From Calonectria ilicicola (taxonomy: Eukaryota > Ascomycota > Sordariomycetes > Hypocreales > Nectriaceae): 64,000 nucleotides of DNA. This document shows, in pieces, positions 14,133-30,136 of the stretch. Numbering within the stretch: the stretch's first letter is position 1; each line of letters begins with the position of its first letter. The position numbers were made by a program, and so were the translations under genes. Location: assembly GCA_020809705.1 (NCBI GenBank), contig CP085826.1:4960001-5024000 (forward strand). The letters run 5' to 3'. Under the pieces are notes generated by a model that did not search any database, was not told the origin of the DNA, and saw only the letters and a program-made list of their open reading frames with translations.

Positions 14133-15714
14133 GTTTGCGAATTTTTTGTGCGTGCGTGCGTGCGCGCGTGGACAAGGGACCGTCTCGTTTGTGTCTGTTT
14201 GTCTTGTGGGCGGGCTTTCGCGAGCGAGGTGCGAGTAAGAATTGAGGCTGCAGTTGCGGCTCGCTAAAGCTTGGGTGGGTACCGTGTTAATTGAGAGAGC
14301 AAGGCACAAGCTCCTTGGGAAAAGCAAGACACCTAGGTCAAGTCAAGGTCAAGGTCGCTGCCAATGTCAATCACAATGGCCCGGGCGGTCGATTGTGGAT
14401 GGCCCTGGGGGGGAGGGAGGGAGGGAGCTGGCGGGGGAGGGGGAGGATGGAGAAGTGATTAAAAGGAAACGACGAGGAACAGGTCGAATTTGCCGACGCG
14501 AAGTGCGGTACGTTCGATATGCAAGGACTTGCAGCCGAGAATGCAAGTCAGTTGAGCAAGTGAGCGATTGAGCTGCGAGTTTTGGGTTTGAGTGGGCTGC
14601 TGGTTCCCTTCACCGTAAATTCGAGTGGCTGGAGGGGTTCCCCTTGGCGGAGCTGGACGCGCGGATTGGCGGCCGGGGGAGACACATGCGGGGGGTGGCC
14701 AGGAGGGCCCTCCTCCAGAGTACGTCCCAGGAGGGGCGCAGGGGACGACGGGGCCGCACTAACGCCGGGTGGGTGGCCACCACCTTCTGGCTCCTCCAGT
14801 GGTCGGTCCCCTGAGCGCAGAACCCACTGTGCTGTAACCACTCGCCAACGCTGGTCATGTCTCGCCCGCTCGCCCGCCCGCTTGCTCGCTCGTTAGCTAG
14901 CTAGTGGGGGGGATGTGTCGTGAACCGAGAGCACAGTCCATGGCTTTTTTATCCAGCTCCGAAGCTCCTTCAAGGGTCTGAGAGCTTCGTGCGCTCAAGT
15001 ACGTGACGCTGCCGCTGTAGCGCGGCGCGGCACGTTGCGGGCCATTAACCACTGATCGCCCACCATTACCATCGCCTTCATGCATCCACCCAGTTTTTTT
15101 TTTCCCTTTCGGTCTTCTATAACCGCTAGGTTCCGTATCCTGCAGCTTGTCTTATGCGTGGGAAATCCTCGGCTATACTGATACTTGGGTGCCACCTGTT
15201 ATTCTGCCTCTCTAAAAGGAAGCTCTCTCTGTACGAGCCTCTGGATGGTGTCATATTCCATCTTCTTGGGTGTAGTAACCATATATGTATACATGTATTC
15301 CAACAATCATATTGCAAACAGTATAAGCTCGCGTTTTGTTCCTACCGTAAGATGTATGACAGTTTTAGGTAAAATCATAACTCGCTTGGCAACAACCATG
15401 TCATCTGTGTCAATACGAGGTGCGTCTTGTATAGGGTAAGTAAATGTGATGGTCCAAAGTTTCACAAACATCCATTCTGAACATCATGAAGCTACAAACT
15501 TGCTAATTTAGACTCTTTTTAACGTGTTAATTGTCCAGGTGAGGTGTAATTGTCGAATCGTAATTCGAGGTCACAAACTATCACGTGACCATTGTTCCCA
15601 GAGTAAAAAAAAAAGCCAGCCCCCACTGATGATGGAGCACAAGTCTCCGCCAAGGGCTAGGGCATTGTGTAAGTTGATAACGGTCATTAAATCCATCCAA
15701 GGACCACCCAAGAA
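14133..15714. other. Intergenic, promoter of the SR-rich TM gene
   Basis: The first ~700 bp are GC-rich with G-runs (for example 14409-14450) and probably form the promoter of the minus-strand gene starting at 14132. The remainder up to the tRNA gene is AT-richer. A CACGTG box lies at about 15580. No protein gene is recognised. Confidence 0.5.
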
Positions 15715-15739
15715 AGCAATTTGGCGCAGTGGAAGCGCG

Positions 15740-15791
15740 GTAAGTTCAAATTCAAAATACAAATCAATGTCACATTACTAACTTGCTCCAG
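15740..15791 (+). other. Intron 1 of the initiator tRNA (spliceosomal-type)
   Basis: This 52-nt insert begins GTAAGT, contains a perfect TACTAAC branch box whose A is 13 nt before the end, and ends CTCCAG. These are textbook fungal spliceosomal signals. It separates the D arm (after position 26) from the anticodon stem. I see no obvious bulge-helix-bulge at its borders. Confidence 0.88.
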
Positions 15792-15811
15792 CCGGGCTCA
15801 TAACCCGGAGG

Positions 15812-15865
15812 GTAAGCCTCTCTCATTCGACTCCTCATCCGCAACACCAACTAACATACCTCGAG
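15812..15865 (+). other. Intron 2 of the initiator tRNA (spliceosomal-type)
   Basis: This 54-nt insert begins GTAAGC, contains AACTAAC with the branch A 12 nt before the end, and ends CTCGAG. It interrupts the variable loop so that its removal leaves exactly AGGTC, the expected five-base initiator variable loop. The GAG acceptor is weaker than the usual (C/T)AG. Confidence 0.82.
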
Positions 15866-15907
15866 TCGCACGATCGAAACGTGCAATTGCTAGCACATCT
15901 CCCATTA

Positions 15908-15915
15908 TTTTTTTT
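15908..15915 (+). terminator. Probable Pol III terminator of the tRNA gene
   Basis: A run of eight T begins 15 nt downstream of the last tRNA base and is the first T-run of this length after the gene. It implies that Pol III reads through both introns and stops here. Confidence 0.75.
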
Positions 15916-24171: not shown

Positions 24172-24792
24172 ATGCCTCGTGGTCCAGGTGATTCCAAACA
24201 GCGTCTTCGTGCCAAGGCCCGAGCTCAGCTTATTAACTCAACGGGTTTTGAAATCATGCCGTGTTCATTCTGTTCCTCTAAGGGTTTGCGATGCAAGATG
24301 TTGCCGGATTCTGGTGACCGTTGCGGCGAGTGCACTCGTCGTGGTAGGACCTGTGATGCTTCAGAGGCGTCTTTGGCTGCGTGTGCGTCATTTTATGGTG
24401 GTGAATGTGGTTGGTTGCTGACTTTGGTAGTAAACCGGATAAATCGGGAGTCCGATCGTTTGGATATAGAGGAAGAGGTCGCTGAGGAGGAGTTCCTTCG
24501 TGTACAAGCGGAGGCGCTTGCGGCTCAGGCCAAGGTTCAGGAATCCTTGAACCGTTTATCCCGTCTTCGTCGTCAGAAACGTCAACTCAAGACGAAGGGT
24601 GTGGAGATGGTGCGTCGTGGGCTTTCTTCTTTGGATGAGTTGGAAGAGGCGGATCGGGTAGAGTCGGAAGCCGTTGTTCAGGCGCAGTCTTTAGGGGCAG
24701 TGGATGTTATCGATTGGAACGCTGTTGACCTCGATGGTTTGCTTGGCGTTGTGTCCTCAGGAACGCTTCCAGCAGCTTCGAGCAGTGCGTGA
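24172..24792 (+). CDS. Antisense ORF in retrotransposon A: Zn2Cys6-like cluster plus coiled coil
   Basis: This 206-residue frame runs opposite to gag-pol, starting 97 bp inside the left LTR, and its 3' end overlaps the end of the integrase frame by about 85 bp. Residues 31-61 contain six cysteines spaced CX2C-X6-C-X9-C-X2-C-X6-C, the Zn(II)2Cys6 binuclear-cluster pattern of fungal transcription factors such as Gal4. A Lys/Arg-rich segment (residues 9-17) precedes it. A long acidic then basic coiled coil (about 95-150) follows, as in Gal4-type dimerisation regions. I recall similar cysteine-rich ORFs as abundant orphan proteins in repeat-rich ascomycete genomes, but have not verified this. The frame is undamaged, like gag. 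A DNA-binding or capsid-associated role is inference. Confidence 0.72.
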   Translation: MPRGPGDSKQRLRAKARAQLINSTGFEIMPCSFCSSKGLRCKMLPDSGDRCGECTRRGRTCDASEASLAACASFYGGECGWLLTLVVNRINRESDRLDIEEEVAEEEFLRVQAEALAAQAKVQESLNRLSRLRRQKRQLKTKGVEMVRRGLSSLDELEEADRVESEAVVQAQSLGAVDVIDWNAVDLDGLLGVVSSGTLPAASSSA

Positions 24793-27700
24793 GATGTTTC
24801 GCGGGTTCCCATGTTGTTTCTTTATAGCCTTTCCATTTAATTTCAAATTTCCCGTCTTCTTCTCTCCTTTGTAGGATTTTTTCGACTTCCCACTGATCTT
24901 CTGGGTTTTCTATTTGTGGTTTGTAGCTGGGTCCTGTATTGACTTGGATGCCGTCACCGGGTTCTAGCAGTGAAATGTGGAAGATAGGGTGCACTTTAAT
25001 GTTGTCTGGGAGGTCGAGTTCATAGTTGTTTTCTGATATTTTTCTTTTAATGGGGTATGGTCCAATCTGCGTGAAGTCGATTTTTTTGTTTTGTCTTTTT
25101 GTTGCAAGATTTTTTGTTGCTAGGTAGACCATGTCTCCCTCCGAAAAGGTTGGTCCCTTCAGCCTTTTGAGGTTGTAATGTCTCTTCATGATGTTACGGA
25201 CGAACTCAAGTTCTGTCTTCATTTCTTCATGTAATTTTCTTAGATCATCTGACTTGATCATAGCTTTTGCTTGGATTGTGCCTTCTAAGGGGGCTCGGTA
25301 AGCATCTGGTGTGAAGCCAAAATTGGCTTTTGCTGGTGTTGTCTTAATGCTGTGATTGTAGGATGTGTTATGTGCTAGCTGTGCGATAGGTAACTTTTCT
25401 ACCCAGTCGGTTTGTTCGTAGTTAATGTAGCATCGTAGATATTGCTCAATTTCCTGGTTTTGGCGTTCGGTTTGTCCGTCTGTTTGGGGGTGGAAAGCTG
25501 TGCTTAGCTTGTGGTTTAACCCCATTAAGGACATCAGGCTTTGCCAAAACTTAGATGCAAATGGTTGTCCTCTATCCGATATGATTTCGGTTGGTAGGCC
25601 GTGTATAGCGACTATATGTCGAAAGAAAAGGTAGGCGAATTGTTCTTCTTTTGTTGCTTTATTATATGGGAGATAATATGCTGCTTTCGTGAAGCGATCA
25701 ACAATAACGAAAATACTATCATAGTATACTCCTGTAGCAGGGTCTGCTGACAAGGGAGGTTGGTAATAAAGTCCATTGTGATTGAGTCCCATGGTCGTTG
25801 TGCGACAGGGGATGGTTGCAATAATCCGTATGGTTTGTGTCTTGGTTTTTTGGAGTGTCGACATAGGCTGCATTCCTTACATACTTGTTCAACTTTCTTT
25901 TTCATCTTACTAAAGGAAAATGTCTGTTTGACTCGTTCAAGGGTTTTGTTGATGCCTTTGTGGCCATGCAAGGGGTGTTCGTGAATGTCCCTTATTAACT
26001 CCATTTGGTGTTCTTCTGGCACTTGTAGGTAGTCCGTTTTTCTTCTTCTGGAAGTGCTAGATTGTATTCTTCGATTTTCCTTAGTAGTGGATTGCCCTGT
26101 TCCACTCGTTGTGTGGGTATTTCCGCAGTAGTGGTTCTGGTTGCACGCGGCAATCCTCCTATTCTCATAGCGGCGATTATTTTCTTTGTTTCTATTGTCA
26201 TTCCACTGATTGGGGCTTGTTCTAGTCCTCCGTTGGTGTTGTAGATCAATAGTTTTTCTTGTGTTTTTGGTTTTTCTGTGTTGTAGTCAGGTCGGCGGCT
26301 GATCGCATCGGCGCGGCCATTCTCAGTTCCTTTAACATGAACGATTTGATAGTCGAATTCGGATAGGTATTCTGCATATCGTAGTTGCCTTCCACTGAGT
26401 TTTTGAGTGGTTGCGAAGTAGGCAATGTTTTTATGGTCGGTGTATACTGTGATTTTGTGGTTGCTTCCTAAAAGGTATTGTCGGAATTCTTTGAAAGCGT
26501 TGACAATAGCAAGGAATTCTTTATCGTAGATGGGGTAGTTTAGCTCAGGGCCATGTAGCTTATGCGAGTAGAATGCTATAGGATGTAGGTTTCCTTGTTC
26601 ATCTCGTTGTCCGATCTGGGCCCCTAGGGCGAAGTCCGATGCATCGGTTTCTAGCTCTATAGGCTTATCAGGGTCGAACATTGCAAGGATGGGTTCTTCT
26701 AAAATAGCATTTTTTATGGCTTCGAATGATTGTTGTGCTTTATTTCCCCATCGAAAGGTAATTCCTTTCTTAGTTAGTTCTGTCATGCCTGAGGCGATTT
26801 TACTAAATCCCTTAATGAATCTTCGGTAATAGTTAGCAAATCCGAGGAAGGCTTGTACTTCCTTCACATTAGTAGGTTCCTTCCAATCTTTTACTGCAGC
26901 AACTTTCTTTGGGTCCATGCGAATTTCGTTAGGGCTGATAATGTGTCCTAGAAATTCTACTTCTTGAGTGTGGAACTTGCTTTTTTCTGGTTCAACCAGG
27001 AGTTTGGCGTCTTGGAGGGCTTTTAAGACCTTATGAACGTGTTCTTCATGTTCTTCCTCGTTTTTGGAGAAGATGAGGATATCGTCCAGGTAGCAGACAA
27101 CAAAGATATCTAAGTGTTCTCGTAATACATTGGTTATCATTCGCTGAAATGATGCCGGTGCATTTGTGAGTCCAAAAGGCATAACTAGGTATTCAAACAG
27201 TCCAAACTTAGTTCGGAAAGCGGTTTTCCATTCATGTCCTTCTTTAATGCGAATAAGATTGTATGCTCCTTTAAGATCCAGTGCAGTAAAGATGTTGGCT
27301 CCATGAAGGCGATCCTTCATTTCATTAATCAATGGTAGTGGAGTGCGATCTTTAATGGTGATATCGTTGAGCTGTCGGTAGTCCACGACGAGGCGTAGCT
27401 TCCCGTTTTTCTTAGGCACAAACATGACAGGGTAACCAGCTTCGGAGTTTGAAATACGGATATATCCCTTTTTGAGCATATCTTGGATGTATTCCTTCAG
27501 GGTATCAAGCTCGATTTGGTTGAGATTATAAATAGGGTAAAATCGGGTGTTGGATCCGTCTTTAAGGACGATTTCGTGATCCCACTGGCTAAACTCAGGT
27601 AGTCCAGTGTCTAGTTCTTCTGCGAAGAGCTTTTCATAGATTCGGTACTGTGGGGGTACATTGTGCAGTCTGTCTGTTTCTGCTTCAGCCTTCATTTCTT

Positions 27701-28383
27701 TGAGGCTTTTATCGATTTGTTGGAACTGTGTTCTAAGGCAGGCGATCGTTCGTTGTCTTTGCCTTTTCTGACCGTTCTTGTGTTTATGTTTTGTTCCTTT
27801 GGGTGGCGAAGATTCTCCTTCGCTCATGTCTCCTGCTTGGTCAGGGCTAGGAGTTCGAGATCTCTCATCGTGTTTTATGGAAATATCGCTGGCTGCATCA
27901 TACTCCTCGGGTATTTGCACCTGGCCAGTACGCCAGCAGATATTAGGGTTGTATCGGTATAACCATGGGTACCCTAAAACTAGGTCGTGTTGTCCGATAT
28001 CAACAATATCGAAGGTTATTCCTTGGTTCTTTCCTTCAACGAAGACTTTCAGGTGATCAATCTTTTTGTCTATAATACCGTTGTTATATCCAAAGGGTGT
28101 TCCTTCTATATTGATGATTTCGTACGGGTCGACTTTCGTTGTCCATGGTAGCTGAAGTTCGTTAACTACTCGAGGATTCACGTAGTTTCGCTCAGCTCCG
28201 CTATCCACCATAGCGTTACACCACTTCCCTTTAATCCTTACTTCTATTTCTAATCGTCGTCGGGGTTGCTCTTTAGTTGTAGAGTATAGAGCTTTTTTAG
28301 GGAGTTCTTTCGGTAACTCCGGGGGTCGTTGCCCTAGCCGCTCCTGCTGCTCTTCTACAGGGGGCTCCGCTCGTTTTTTGGTT
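24707..28383 (-). pseudogene. pol of element A (protease, RT, RNase H, integrase, chromodomain) with two 1-nt shifts
   Basis: The pol frame is open from the gag overlap (about 28383) and continues down to 24707. The protease has the MVDSGAERNYV active site (28211 onward). RT shows LVVDYRQLN, AFRTKFGLFEYLVMPFGLTNAP and the catalytic YLDDILIFS. RNase H shows LETDASDFALGAQ and YTDHKNIAYF. Integrase has HPLHGHKG with CKECSLC (zinc-binding HHCC), then IVDRFTKAAYYLPY and FHPQTDGQTERQNQ. The C-terminus has a chromodomain with WEVEKILQRREEDGKFEIKW. The frame changes once near 26040 (RNase H/integrase linker) and once near 25770 (before the integrase core). Each is one base short compared with the parallel positions of RIP-decayed element B. 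Both lie in or beside homopolymer runs. Expression of full pol would also need a -1 shift at 28373-28379. Confidence 0.9.
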
Positions 28384-30136
28384 TTGTTCGGTGCCAGGCC
28401 ATTGCTTTATCTATCATGTGGATATCGCATTTGGGGTCTTGACATTCATTCCAGGGCAGCTCGCTGCAATCGGGGAACTCAGGCTCACCTGGTTCCAACA
28501 TAGTGAACTGGTAGTGGGGGTTTCTTCCCGTTACTTCGTGTCGGTCGAAGTGTCTCCCATAGGCGCGGTGGATGACCACGTCTTCTACCCTAATGGGAAA
28601 GCATGCTGCATGCTGCTTTTGTTCCATGTGTTGGAGGCAGTCGTGGTCGTAGCAGCTTACCCATGAGATGTTCTTATGTTCTTCGTGTACCGTGTTTAGT
28701 CTAGGGTCATCCTCCTTATGTTGGATAGGTCGGGGGTCGCGGTTTCCTGGTTGCCATTCGCTTCGCGCAAGTAGGAAGACTTTGTCTCCGTCCCACGAGG
28801 GTTCCCTGACTTGTTGGGCCATTCTTTTAATACTAGTTGTCCATTTCCTGTTTCCATTTTCGTCATAAGTGCAGGTATCCCACCATGCTGGTGCTTTGTC
28901 GGTATACACATCTAGGATGGATGCAGGGATTCCTATCTTCTTGGCTCGTTCCAACCATTCGTGGGGAAGGCAGGACTGGCCTTCTTGTCGGGTTGACCAT
29001 GCTTTTCGGATGGCTTCATCGATTTCTTGTTGCGGAGTGAGTTTTACCTTGCGCAACTCATGGTTTTCCGTACATTGCTTAACTATGGTGGTTGGTTCAT
29101 GTTTCTTAATGACAGCAAGAACAACTTTTCCTGTGGTATCCTCTTTTCCTTCTGGTACCGGGGTCCATTGAGTTTTCATAGTGTTGAGTTGTTTCTGTCC
29201 TTCTGGTATGGGTTTGAACTGATTTCCTGTTTTCGGGGAGCGGCATTCGAAGGATTTATGTCCTTTTTTCCCGCAGTTGAAGCAGGTAATCTTACTTTTG
29301 TCATACCCCTGGGTGGCGCCGAGTTCCATTGGCCCTGAATGAGTCCCGTGTGCGGTGCTTTGTTGCTTATTCTGGGTTTTTCCTTTATTCGGGATATATG
29401 GGTTTTTGTTATCTCGGGCGCGTTCCTTGCGTCGGTTAAATTGTCTTTCGTCGATCTTGACAGCACTTTTGATATACTCCGAGAGTTTTTCTGGCCGGTC
29501 TTCTTTATAGATTTCGTCCTTGACTTCGCCCTTCAGGCCTCTATAGTAGAGTTCCATTAGTGCGTCGTCATCCCAGGCTGTTCGTGCTGCAATCCTTTTG
29601 AACTCGGCCGAATACTGGCTGCAGGATTTTGTTTGTTTAAGTTCGTATAACTGGTTTACAGCTTGTTGTTCCATATCGATCGTGCCGAAATTGTCTTTAA
29701 TAGCGGTTTCGAAATGTTCCCAGTCTCTGAAGATCTCTCGGGTCTCTTCATTTTGGTCGGCGTCGTCCTCGTTTTCCAGATAGTCTCTCATGATGGGTTC
29801 AAACCATACTCCTGCGTCTCCTTGGAGGAGGGTTTTGGTGTATAGTACCTGGGCTTCGGGGGTTGCAAGTCGCGTTGGGAAAAAGCGGAAGTATCCCTTC
29901 ATTCGGGTGAGGAAGGGGACTACATCGGCAGCCTTTCCTAGGAAGGGCTCTGGGACCGGGGGTCTCAGAATTTCACCAATGTCTTTACCCTTGTTTCCTT
30001 CAACCGTGGTGGTTCCGGCTTTTTCTGCTTTAAGTTGTGCTTGTGCATCTGCGAGTTTCTTCTTAACCTGCTGCAGTTCCGTAGTCAACTCGGCGTTGCT
30101 AGGAGGAGCAGTGGCGGCGGGGTTCTTTCCGGACAT
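28355..30136 (-). CDS. gag polyprotein of element A
   Basis: The 593-residue frame begins with a Ser/Pro/Ala-rich N-terminus and a Lys/Ala/Gln coiled coil. A Ty3-type capsid region follows (FLTRMKGYFRFFPTRLATPE ... ALMELYYRGLKGEVKDEIY). A single CCHC zinc knuckle, CFNCGKKGHKSFEC, lies near residue 290. The ~290-residue tail after the knuckle is unusually long for gag and contains Cys/His-rich stretches (CTYDENG, CYDHDC, CDIH) of unknown role. Gag forms the virus-like particle and packages element RNA. The frame is undamaged and ends in TAG inside the overlap with pol. Confidence 0.92.
   Translation of the reverse strand: MSGKNPAATAPPSNAELTTELQQVKKKLADAQAQLKAEKAGTTTVEGNKGKDIGEILRPPVPEPFLGKAADVVPFLTRMKGYFRFFPTRLATPEAQVLYTKTLLQGDAGVWFEPIMRDYLENEDDADQNEETREIFRDWEHFETAIKDNFGTIDMEQQAVNQLYELKQTKSCSQYSAEFKRIAARTAWDDDALMELYYRGLKGEVKDEIYKEDRPEKLSEYIKSAVKIDERQFNRRKERARDNKNPYIPNKGKTQNKQQSTAHGTHSGPMELGATQGYDKSKITCFNCGKKGHKSFECRSPKTGNQFKPIPEGQKQLNTMKTQWTPVPEGKEDTTGKVVLAVIKKHEPTTIVKQCTENHELRKVKLTPQQEIDEAIRKAWSTRQEGQSCLPHEWLERAKKIGIPASILDVYTDKAPAWWDTCTYDENGNRKWTTSIKRMAQQVREPSWDGDKVFLLARSEWQPGNRDPRPIQHKEDDPRLNTVHEEHKNISWVSCYDHDCLQHMEQKQHAACFPIRVEDVVIHRAYGRHFDRHEVTGRNPHYQFTMLEPGEPEFPDCSELPWNECQDPKCDIHMIDKAMAWHRTKPKNERSPL
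28373..28379 (-). promoter_or_regulatory. Candidate -1 frameshift slippery site A AAA AAC (gag-pol)
   Basis: Read on the minus strand in the gag frame, the heptamer A AAA AAC fits the X XXY YYZ rule exactly. It lies six codons before the gag stop, and shifting back one base here enters the open pol frame (AAA CGA GCG GAG ...). It is the only such heptamer I noticed in the overlap. A downstream GC-rich stretch could form a stimulatory structure, not tested. Confidence 0.7.

What the first reader, a model, noticed from the sequence alone, without database searches (positions are those of the whole stretch)
15715..15892. Initiator tRNA-Met gene split by two spliceosomal-type introns at non-canonical positions
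Seen: the three pieces rebuild a perfect 72-nt initiator tRNA (all four stems fully paired; A1:T72, G29-31:C39-41, A54/A60, anticodon CAT). The inserts are GTAAGT...TACTAAC...CAG (52 nt, between positions 26 and 27) and GTAAGC...AACTAAC...GAG (54 nt, in the variable loop). Established: eukaryotic nuclear tRNA introns normally lie at 37/38 and are removed by the tRNA splicing endonuclease; a Pol III RNA with mRNA-type introns is known for U6 snRNA in some fungi, and ectopic tRNA introns in a red alga. Inference: here the spliceosome must process a Pol III pre-tRNA, and because the product starts translation, splicing would be essential if this is the only iMet locus. Programs modelling only 37/38 introns would miss this gene. 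I do not know of a description.
Basis: partly seen in the sequence, partly recalled or inferred. Interest (0 to 1): 0.96.

Follow-up and report, generated by a model that had tools for sequence, protein, structure and literature searches.

The report
Initiator tRNA genes with spliceosomal introns
In this fungus all nine copies found of the gene for the tRNA that starts every protein are interrupted, off the usual tRNA intron site, by an insert carrying the splice signals of messenger-RNA introns, so translation would likely depend on the spliceosome to make a working initiator tRNA.

Summary
Confirmed, and larger than reported. Window 15715-15892 is an initiator tRNA-Met gene in three exons, interrupted by a 52-nt and a 54-nt GT...CTAAC...AG insert. 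The genome (69.9 Mb, 12 contigs; a Nectriaceae relative, not Aspergillus) has nine initiator loci. All nine carry a 52-55 nt insert between tRNA positions 26 and 27 with GTRWGT, CTAAC and AG (9/9 each). Exons are identical in eight of nine, while intron interiors have drifted (mean 37.5% identity, 0 of 35 columns invariant). Four searches found no intron-free copy. Only the window copy has the second intron. Endonuclease (bulge-helix-bulge) geometry is absent. Both U6 genes found also carry mRNA-type introns, so the spliceosome probably already works on Pol III transcripts here. Most likely the spliceosome removes these introns from a Pol III pre-tRNA, and all cytoplasmic initiator tRNA depends on it. 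Splicing itself is inferred: no RNA data could be consulted. A 2017 survey names U3 and U6 as the only small structured RNAs known to be often interrupted by introns; ten searches of the held open library found no tRNA case.

The parts
15653..15665 (+). Upstream element AGGGCTAGGGCAT, ending 49 bp before the gene
   Evidence: This exact 13-mer occurs 3 times in 69.9 Mb (1 hit for the reversed control), all three ending 37-49 bp upstream of initiator tRNA genes: window, C7:104708, C11:499045. Looser forms are seen by eye upstream of L003 and L005. Function inferred.
15715..15739 (+). Exon 1: initiator tRNA positions 1-26 (acceptor 5' strand, D arm, G26); holds the internal A box (about 15722-15733)
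   Evidence: Identical 25 nt in 9 of 9 loci; joined tRNA recognised by ARAGORN; A-box label and standard numbering recalled
15740..15791 (+). Intron 1 (52 nt): GTAAGT ... ACTAAC ... CAG, between tRNA positions 26 and 27
   Evidence: Insert at the same site in 9 of 9 loci; GTRWGT 9/9, CTAAC 9/9 followed by 8-9 nt, AG 9/9; interior diverged
15792..15811 (+). Exon 2: positions 27-46, complete anticodon arm with CAT
   Evidence: Identical in 9 of 9 loci
15812..15865 (+). Intron 2 (54 nt): GTAAGC ... ACTAAC ... GAG, between positions 46 and 47 of the variable loop
   Evidence: Only in this copy (1 of 9); GT-AG boundaries restore exactly the sequence of seven other copies; GAG|T is of a rare 3' splice-site type (RAG|Y, 2.18% of 2022 Fusarium introns, PMC5677156)
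15866..15892 (+). Exon 3: positions 47-73, T arm and acceptor 3' strand; holds the B-box equivalent (about 15871-15881)
   Evidence: Identical in 8 of 9 loci, one substitution in L009; B-box label recalled
15908..15915 (+). T8 run beginning 16 nt past the gene: likely Pol III terminator
   Evidence: A run of T6 or longer begins 8-30 nt downstream in 9 of 9 loci; longest T run in any of the nine first introns is 3

Best explanation
Window 15715-15892 is one of nine initiator tRNA-Met genes in this Nectriaceae-like fungal genome, all nine interrupted between tRNA positions 26 and 27 by a short insert with messenger-RNA-type splice signals, which the spliceosome would likely remove from what is predicted to be a Pol III precursor, to make the cytoplasmic initiator tRNA. 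Steps: (1) Pol III likely transcribes the gene from its internal A and B boxes and stops at the downstream T run (inferred from sequence). (2) The precursor can fold the tRNA stems with the intron looped out between the D arm and the anticodon arm (predicted). (3) U1/U6 would recognise GTRWGT and U2 the CTAAC branch site, and the exons would be joined with G26 next to C27 (inferred from conserved signals). (4) In the window copy a second intron in the variable loop would be removed in the same way (inferred). (5) As no intron-free copy was found in the assembly, the whole supply of initiator tRNA would depend on the spliceosome, whose own U6 RNA also comes here from two intron-bearing genes (U6 introns shown in sequence; dependence inferred).
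For: Nine loci on six contigs, all with the insert. Splice signals constant (9/9 for each of GTRWGT, CTAAC, AG; 12 of 13 signal columns invariant) while intron interiors average 37.5% pairwise identity with 0 of 35 columns invariant: what has been kept is just what a spliceosome needs. Lengths of 52-55 nt, GT-AG ends and CTRAY branch sites fit 2022 introns of Fusarium core genes (PMC5677156; passages seen). Exons identical over 72 nt in 8 of 9 copies, one substitution in the ninth. No intron-free copy: junction pattern with up to 3 mismatches 0 hits (reversed control 2), although the yeast gene would match it exactly; 17-mer of exon 1 exactly 9 perfect hits, all nine intron-bearing; 13-mer of exon 2 ten hits = the nine loci plus one that is not called as a tRNA. 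No bulge-helix-bulge at any boundary. Elongator-type tRNA-Met genes in the same genome have their extra sequence in the anticodon loop. Both U6 genes found have GTAAGT...CTAAC...CAG introns of 55 and 58 nt, each holding a B-box sequence GGTTCGANTCC, so they likely lie in Pol III transcripts. A 13-mer upstream element occurs three times in the genome, all before initiator tRNA genes.
Against: No RNA evidence: splicing, Pol III origin and use of the product are untested. Insert 2 is in one copy of nine, ends in the rare GAG|T, and has donor GTAAGC, failing the strict signal test; [quoted passage not shown] The two introns stretch the A-to-B box distance in the window copy to 149 bp (start to start, from coordinates), which may weaken that copy. 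Two of nine first introns end in AAG rather than YAG, and the exon after all nine first introns begins with C, whereas the Fusarium table lists YAG|R. L009 has an A4-C69 mismatch, so not every copy need be fully functional. The predicted minimum-energy fold of the joined, unmodified tRNA shows the acceptor and T stems but not the D and anticodon stems. In some algae introns at odd places without a clear bulge-helix-bulge are excised by an unknown route (PMC3978253, PMC4090602; passages seen), so lack of that motif alone does not exclude an endonuclease. The genome may be incomplete; an unassembled intron-free copy cannot be excluded.
Confidence: 0.88

Rival explanations
1. The inserts are tRNA-type introns at unusual positions, cut by the tRNA splicing endonuclease and ligated by tRNA ligase, as in Cyanidioschyzon and nucleomorphs.
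For: Such ectopic tRNA introns exist in some algae, and many of those in Guillardia lack a defined bulge-helix-bulge.
Against: In both possible boundary frames the 4-bp central helix and the intron-side helix are incomplete in all 9 first introns and in intron 2. An endonuclease has no known need for GTRWGT, CTAAC and AG, the constant features of the inserts. Elongator-type tRNA-Met genes of this genome have their intron in the anticodon loop.
Confidence: 0.05
2. The nine loci are decayed or silent copies, and a normal intron-free initiator tRNA gene exists that is missing from or masked in this assembly.
For: The held genome may be incomplete and withheld stretches read N; one copy has a stem mismatch (L009).
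Against: Nine dispersed copies with essentially identical 72-nt exons and intact splice signals are not decaying. No intron-free copy by four searches in 69.9 Mb held as 12 contigs. Initiator tRNA genes are multicopy here, so losing all intron-free ones from an assembly is unlikely (inference).
Confidence: 0.05
3. The introns are spliced, but from Pol II read-through transcripts, and only part of the tRNA pool passes that way.
For: Spliceosomal splicing is normally coupled to Pol II (established knowledge).
Against: Exons keep the internal promoter boxes, and T runs fitting Pol III termination follow all nine loci; U6 genes of the same genome show mRNA-type introns with a B box inside. With no intron-free copy the whole pool would still need splicing.
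Confidence: 0.07
4. Self-splicing (group I or II) introns.
For: A group I intron is known in a cyanobacterial initiator tRNA gene (reference title seen in PMC8450103).
Against: At 52-55 nt the inserts are far too short (group I: 250-500 nt, abstract of PMC10964413 in the listing), and interiors share no conserved core (0 of 35 columns).
Confidence: 0.01

Closest known systems
mRNA-type introns in fungal U6 snRNA genes (Tani and Ohshima 1989; Canzler et al. 2016; both seen only as references in PMC5832005)
   Same: Short GT...CTAAC...AG intron in a small structured RNA likely made by Pol III; both U6 genes found in this genome have one, with a B box inside
   Different: The host RNA is a tRNA; none of the nine first introns holds a GGTTCGANTCC B box (L008 has the near form GGTTCGAGCTC), and the intron is in every copy found of a translation-essential tRNA
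Spliceosomal introns in fungal U3 snoRNA genes (PMC5832005, section 3.2 and passages seen)
   Same: Nearly the same signals: GTRWGT, RCTRAC, YAG; common in Pezizomycotina
   Different: Other RNA class; the three U3 genes found in this genome give hits of about model length (267-271 nt for 274 positions), so no intron
Canonical eukaryotic nuclear tRNA introns (37/38, tRNA splicing endonuclease)
   Same: Intron in a nuclear tRNA gene
   Different: Position 26/27 and 46/47, spliceosomal consensus, no bulge-helix-bulge; an elongator-type tRNA-Met of the genome (L031) has a 26-nt anticodon-loop intron without a GT...AG pattern
Ectopic tRNA introns of Cyanidioschyzon merolae and cryptophyte/chlorarachniophyte nucleomorphs (PMC4090602, PMC3978253, passages)
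   Same: Eukaryotic tRNA introns outside 37/38, sometimes several per gene
   Different: Those are discussed as tRNA-endonuclease substrates; no spliceosomal signals are mentioned in the passages seen

Membership tests
U2-type spliceosomal intron | GT-AG boundaries | tested here: met
   10 of 10 inserts (nine first introns, one second) start GT and end AG with restoration of the tRNA
U2-type spliceosomal intron | Extended 5' splice site GTRWGT and CTRAY branch site near the 3' end | tested here: met
   GTRWGT in 9 of 9 first introns (intron 2 deviates: GTAAGC); CTAAC in 10 of 10, followed by 8-10 nt
U2-type spliceosomal intron | Length and signals within the range of mRNA introns of related fungi | tested here: met
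   52-55 nt against 42-529 nt in Fusarium; there CTRAY 91%, YAG|R 94.31%, RAG|R 3.51%, RAG|Y 2.18% (PMC5677156 table). Deviation: the following exon starts with C (first introns) or T (intron 2), not R
U2-type spliceosomal intron | Excision as a lariat, dependence on the spliceosome | not testable with these tools
   No RNA data
Cytoplasmic initiator tRNA-Met | A1:T72, CAT anticodon, GGG/CCC in the anticodon stem, A54 and A60 in the T loop | tested here: met
   53 of 72 identical to yeast initiator without gaps (list of hallmarks recalled and as in the finding)
Cytoplasmic initiator tRNA-Met | Expressed, charged and used for initiation | not testable with these tools
   Inferred from exon identity among nine copies and absence of another gene
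Endonuclease-type (bulge-helix-bulge) tRNA intron | 3-nt bulges flanking a 4-bp helix at the two junctions | tested here: not met
   Central helix 1-3 of 4 pairs, intron-side helix 0-2 of 4, in both frames of all 10 inserts (geometry of the motif recalled)
Endonuclease-type (bulge-helix-bulge) tRNA intron | Position 37/38 (eukaryotic nuclear tRNAs) | tested here: not met
   26/27 and 46/47
tRNA pseudogene | Degraded stems, or intact functional paralogues elsewhere | tested here: not met
   All stems paired in 8 of 9 copies, one mismatch in L009; no intron-free paralogue found

The most novel reading that the evidence does not exclude
The whole cytoplasmic initiator tRNA supply of this fungus is made by the spliceosome from Pol III precursors: the first nuclear tRNA family with obligate spliceosomal introns. 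Every act of translation would hang on splicing capacity, and through intron-bearing U6 genes the spliceosome depends on itself as well. Because the introns of most paralogues have diverged almost completely, the arrangement is old and should be shared by many Nectriaceae or Hypocreales, in which standard tRNA finders would miss or mislabel the initiator gene.
Probability: 0.8. Interest if true: 0.96.

Novelty: new variant of a known kind. Interest (0 to 1): 0.93.

Why it matters
tRNA introns and mRNA introns are taught as two separate worlds with separate enzymes. Here sequence evidence from nine gene copies indicates that an essential tRNA has crossed over to the spliceosome. If so, splicing inhibitors, splicing mutants or stress would hit translation initiation directly; gene finders that allow only anticodon-loop introns would report genomes as lacking an initiator tRNA or give it a false identity (7 of 9 unspliced copies got a wrong name when long introns were allowed); and the statement that spliceosomal introns in small structured RNAs are a U3/U6 affair (PMC5832005) would need widening. 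It also offers a natural test of how the spliceosome works on an uncapped precursor with a 25-nt first exon.

Tried and rejected
Aspergillus/Penicillium origin: rejected. The NOP14 protein of the window is 84% identical to that of Mariannaea sp., and among the next named rows 80-81% to Ilyonectria and Fusarium and 78-79% to Neonectria (best 120 of 2296 matches listed). This rests on one protein; the species is not identified.

Introner or transposon origin of intron 2: the 201-bp query gave no second place for that stretch; no source found.

Other tRNA genes with such introns: a pattern for a branch site plus AG within 30 nt of a standard B box gave 3 places in the genome (reversed control: 8); none of the three is called as a tRNA by ARAGORN. 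This screen is narrow; other isotypes were not surveyed. The Rfam tRNA search scored only 63 of 2542 candidates, and the U6 and U3 searches scored 47 of 4404 and 24 of 1078.

Relatives: pattern scans of viral contigs and genome contigs gave 0 hits, as expected of collections of viruses, bacteria and archaea; so spread among fungi is untested here.

T-run avoidance in the introns as a Pol III signature: none of the 10 introns holds TTTT, but no adequate set of mRNA introns was available for comparison; the strict intron pattern has one other match in the window.

Literature: ten searches over the held open library listed no report of a spliceosomal intron in a nuclear tRNA gene, judged by titles, abstract starts and the passages opened. 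The library lacks most subscription papers, so prior description elsewhere is possible.

Full report
What was checked. The finding describes an initiator tRNA-Met gene at 15715-15892 cut by two inserts with mRNA-type splice signals. The sequence is as described. Exon 1 is 15715-15739, insert 1 15740-15791 (52 nt), exon 2 15792-15811, insert 2 15812-15865 (54 nt), exon 3 15866-15892. Joined, the exons give a 72-nt tRNA with all 21 stem pairs Watson-Crick, A1:T72, CAT anticodon, three G-C pairs next to the anticodon loop and A54/A60 (standard numbering recalled). The yeast initiator tRNA as printed in PMC7957392 (passage seen) aligns without gaps, 53 of 72 identical, with GAAGCGCGC on both sides of the first junction in both. 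ARAGORN and the Rfam gathering search see nothing in the window, while ARAGORN calls tRNA-Met(cat) on the joined exons.

The whole genome. The window lies in a genome of 69.9 Mb in 12 contigs. A search with the window gene found nine loci with initiator tRNA exons on contigs C1, C2 (two), C4, C7 (three), C10 and C11. All nine have an insert at the same place, between tRNA positions 26 and 27, of 52-55 nt. They start GTAAGT (2) or GTATGT (7), all have CTAAC followed by 8-9 nt to the end, and all end in AG (CAG 6, TAG 1, AAG 2). Only the window copy has the second insert. Exons are identical in eight copies; L009 differs by one base that gives an A4-C69 mismatch.

No intron-free copy was found. 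The 17-mer core of exon 1 has nine perfect matches in the genome, all in these loci (the reversed control has seven matches within two mismatches). Of its ten near-matches with one or two mismatches eight were fetched: three tRNA-Arg(cct) genes, one ARAGORN tRNA-Arg(ccg) call and four with no tRNA called. A search with the joined 72-mer found only separate exons, at eight of the nine loci; the window copy, cut twice, was not among its candidates. A pattern across the unspliced junction, which the yeast gene would match exactly, found nothing with up to three mismatches. The anticodon-arm 13-mer occurs ten times: the nine loci and one place on C9 where ARAGORN calls no tRNA. The assembly may be incomplete, so this is strong but not absolute.

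Chance and selection. None of 2,000,000 shuffles of the nine first inserts had all three signals. More telling is the comparison among copies: 12 of 13 signal columns are invariant, but 0 of 35 interior columns are, and interiors share on average 37.5% identity (range 21-97%). The 97% is the pair L002/L004, which must be a recent copy or conversion. Flanking DNA shows ungapped mean identities of 21-38% in the 60 bp upstream, except 71% in the last ten bases, and 36% in the first 20 bp downstream. So most of the loci are old copies in which the exons and the splice signals have been kept and the rest has drifted. This is the pattern of working introns, not of decay. For insert 2, which is in one copy only, no such comparison is possible; it rests on its GT-AG ends, branch site and exact restoration of the tRNA, and its donor (GTAAGC) and acceptor (GAG) are weaker.

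Which machine? The tRNA endonuclease route was tested by looking for the bulge-helix-bulge at both boundary frames of all ten inserts: no junction has a complete central helix or intron-side helix. The position is not 37/38. Other tRNA genes of this genome have their extra sequence in the anticodon loop: the elongator-type tRNA-Met L031 was called with a 26-nt intron there; L030 has the same exons and the same length, though ARAGORN put only 9 nt of it in an intron (ARAGORN looks for introns in that loop only). Lack of the bulge-helix-bulge alone is not decisive, because some algal tRNA introns lack it too (PMC3978253, passage). But the constant features here are just those read by U1, U2 and the 3' splice-site machinery, and they match 2022 introns of Fusarium core genes in length, 5' site and branch site (PMC5677156, passages). 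Two first introns end AAG|C and intron 2 ends GAG|T; both are of the RAG|Y type, 2.18% in that survey. The following exon starts with a pyrimidine in all cases, whereas the survey's table writes YAG|R (its consensus gives R 59%).

Precedent in the same genome. U6 snRNA is the classical Pol III transcript with an mRNA-type intron (recalled; references in PMC5832005). Two U6 genes were found and both have one: 55 nt between GAAACGAT and ACAGAGA, and 58 nt between ACAGAGAAGAT and TAGCATGG. Both introns hold a B-box sequence GGTTCGANTCC, so they likely lie inside Pol III units (the B-box reading is recalled knowledge). The three U3 genes found give hits of about model length, without room for an intron. 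The spliceosome of this fungus therefore probably already handles Pol III precursors.

Signs that the genes are active. T runs of six or more begin 8-30 nt after each gene, and the longest T run in the nine first introns is three. The element AGGGCTAGGGCAT occurs three times in the whole genome, each time ending 37-49 bp upstream of an initiator tRNA gene; looser forms stand before L003 and L005. In predicted folds of the unspliced precursors the anticodon and T stems are complete in 9 of 9, the acceptor stem in 8 of 9 and the D stem in 6 of 9. The minimum-energy fold of the joined tRNA itself lacks the D and anticodon stems, so these folds of unmodified RNA should not be pressed.

What remains inferred. 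No RNA data were within reach. That the precursor is made by Pol III, that the spliceosome cuts it as a lariat, that the product is charged and used, and that this is the only source of initiator tRNA are inferences. The organism is known only as a relative of Mariannaea/Ilyonectria/Fusarium from one protein. How far the intron is spread among relatives is untested; intron divergence among paralogues suggests an old gain.

Novelty. PMC5832005 (2017; [quoted passage not shown] tRNAscan-SE 2.0 (PMC8450103, passages) describes its search for such introns for archaea and says eukaryotic tRNA genes are limited to one intron. Ten searches of the held library listed no tRNA with spliceosomal introns (calls under Tried and rejected); papers outside the library may exist. 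The mechanism is of a known kind (spliceosomal intron in a likely Pol III RNA); the substrate, a whole essential tRNA family, is new as far as these searches go.

Noticed in passing
L017:1486-1540 and L018:1555-1612 (G000 C1 and C3): Both U6 snRNA genes found in the genome carry mRNA-type introns, at two different sites (before ACAGAGA and after ACAGAGAAGAT), and each intron holds a B box GGTTCGANTCC, as recalled for S. pombe U6.
   Followed up: partly
window 15653-15665; C7:104708-104720; C11:499045-499057: The 13-mer AGGGCTAGGGCAT is found three times in 69.9 Mb, each time 37-49 bp upstream of an initiator tRNA gene: possibly a gene-specific upstream promoter element, looking somewhat like telomere-type repeats.
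   Followed up: partly
L002-L006, L008, L009 (unspliced genes): With long introns allowed, ARAGORN gives 7 of 9 unspliced initiator genes a wrong identity (His, Val, Arg or Pyl): annotations of related genomes may hold such false tRNAs in place of the initiator.
   Followed up: no
L008 intron 1: One first intron holds GGTTCGAGCTC, one or two bases from a perfect B box; the other eight do not hold GGTTCGA.
   Followed up: no
L040, L041 (around C3:5931268 and C12:1280504): Two B-box-bearing places downstream of GGACTAACTA sequences that ARAGORN does not call as tRNAs; by eye they look like tRNA-derived repeats.
   Followed up: no
window 24707-30136 (-): ORFs that read like a Ty3/gypsy-type retrotransposon (gag-like with a zinc knuckle, reverse transcriptase/integrase-like, chromodomain-like end); judged by eye from translations.
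   Followed up: no
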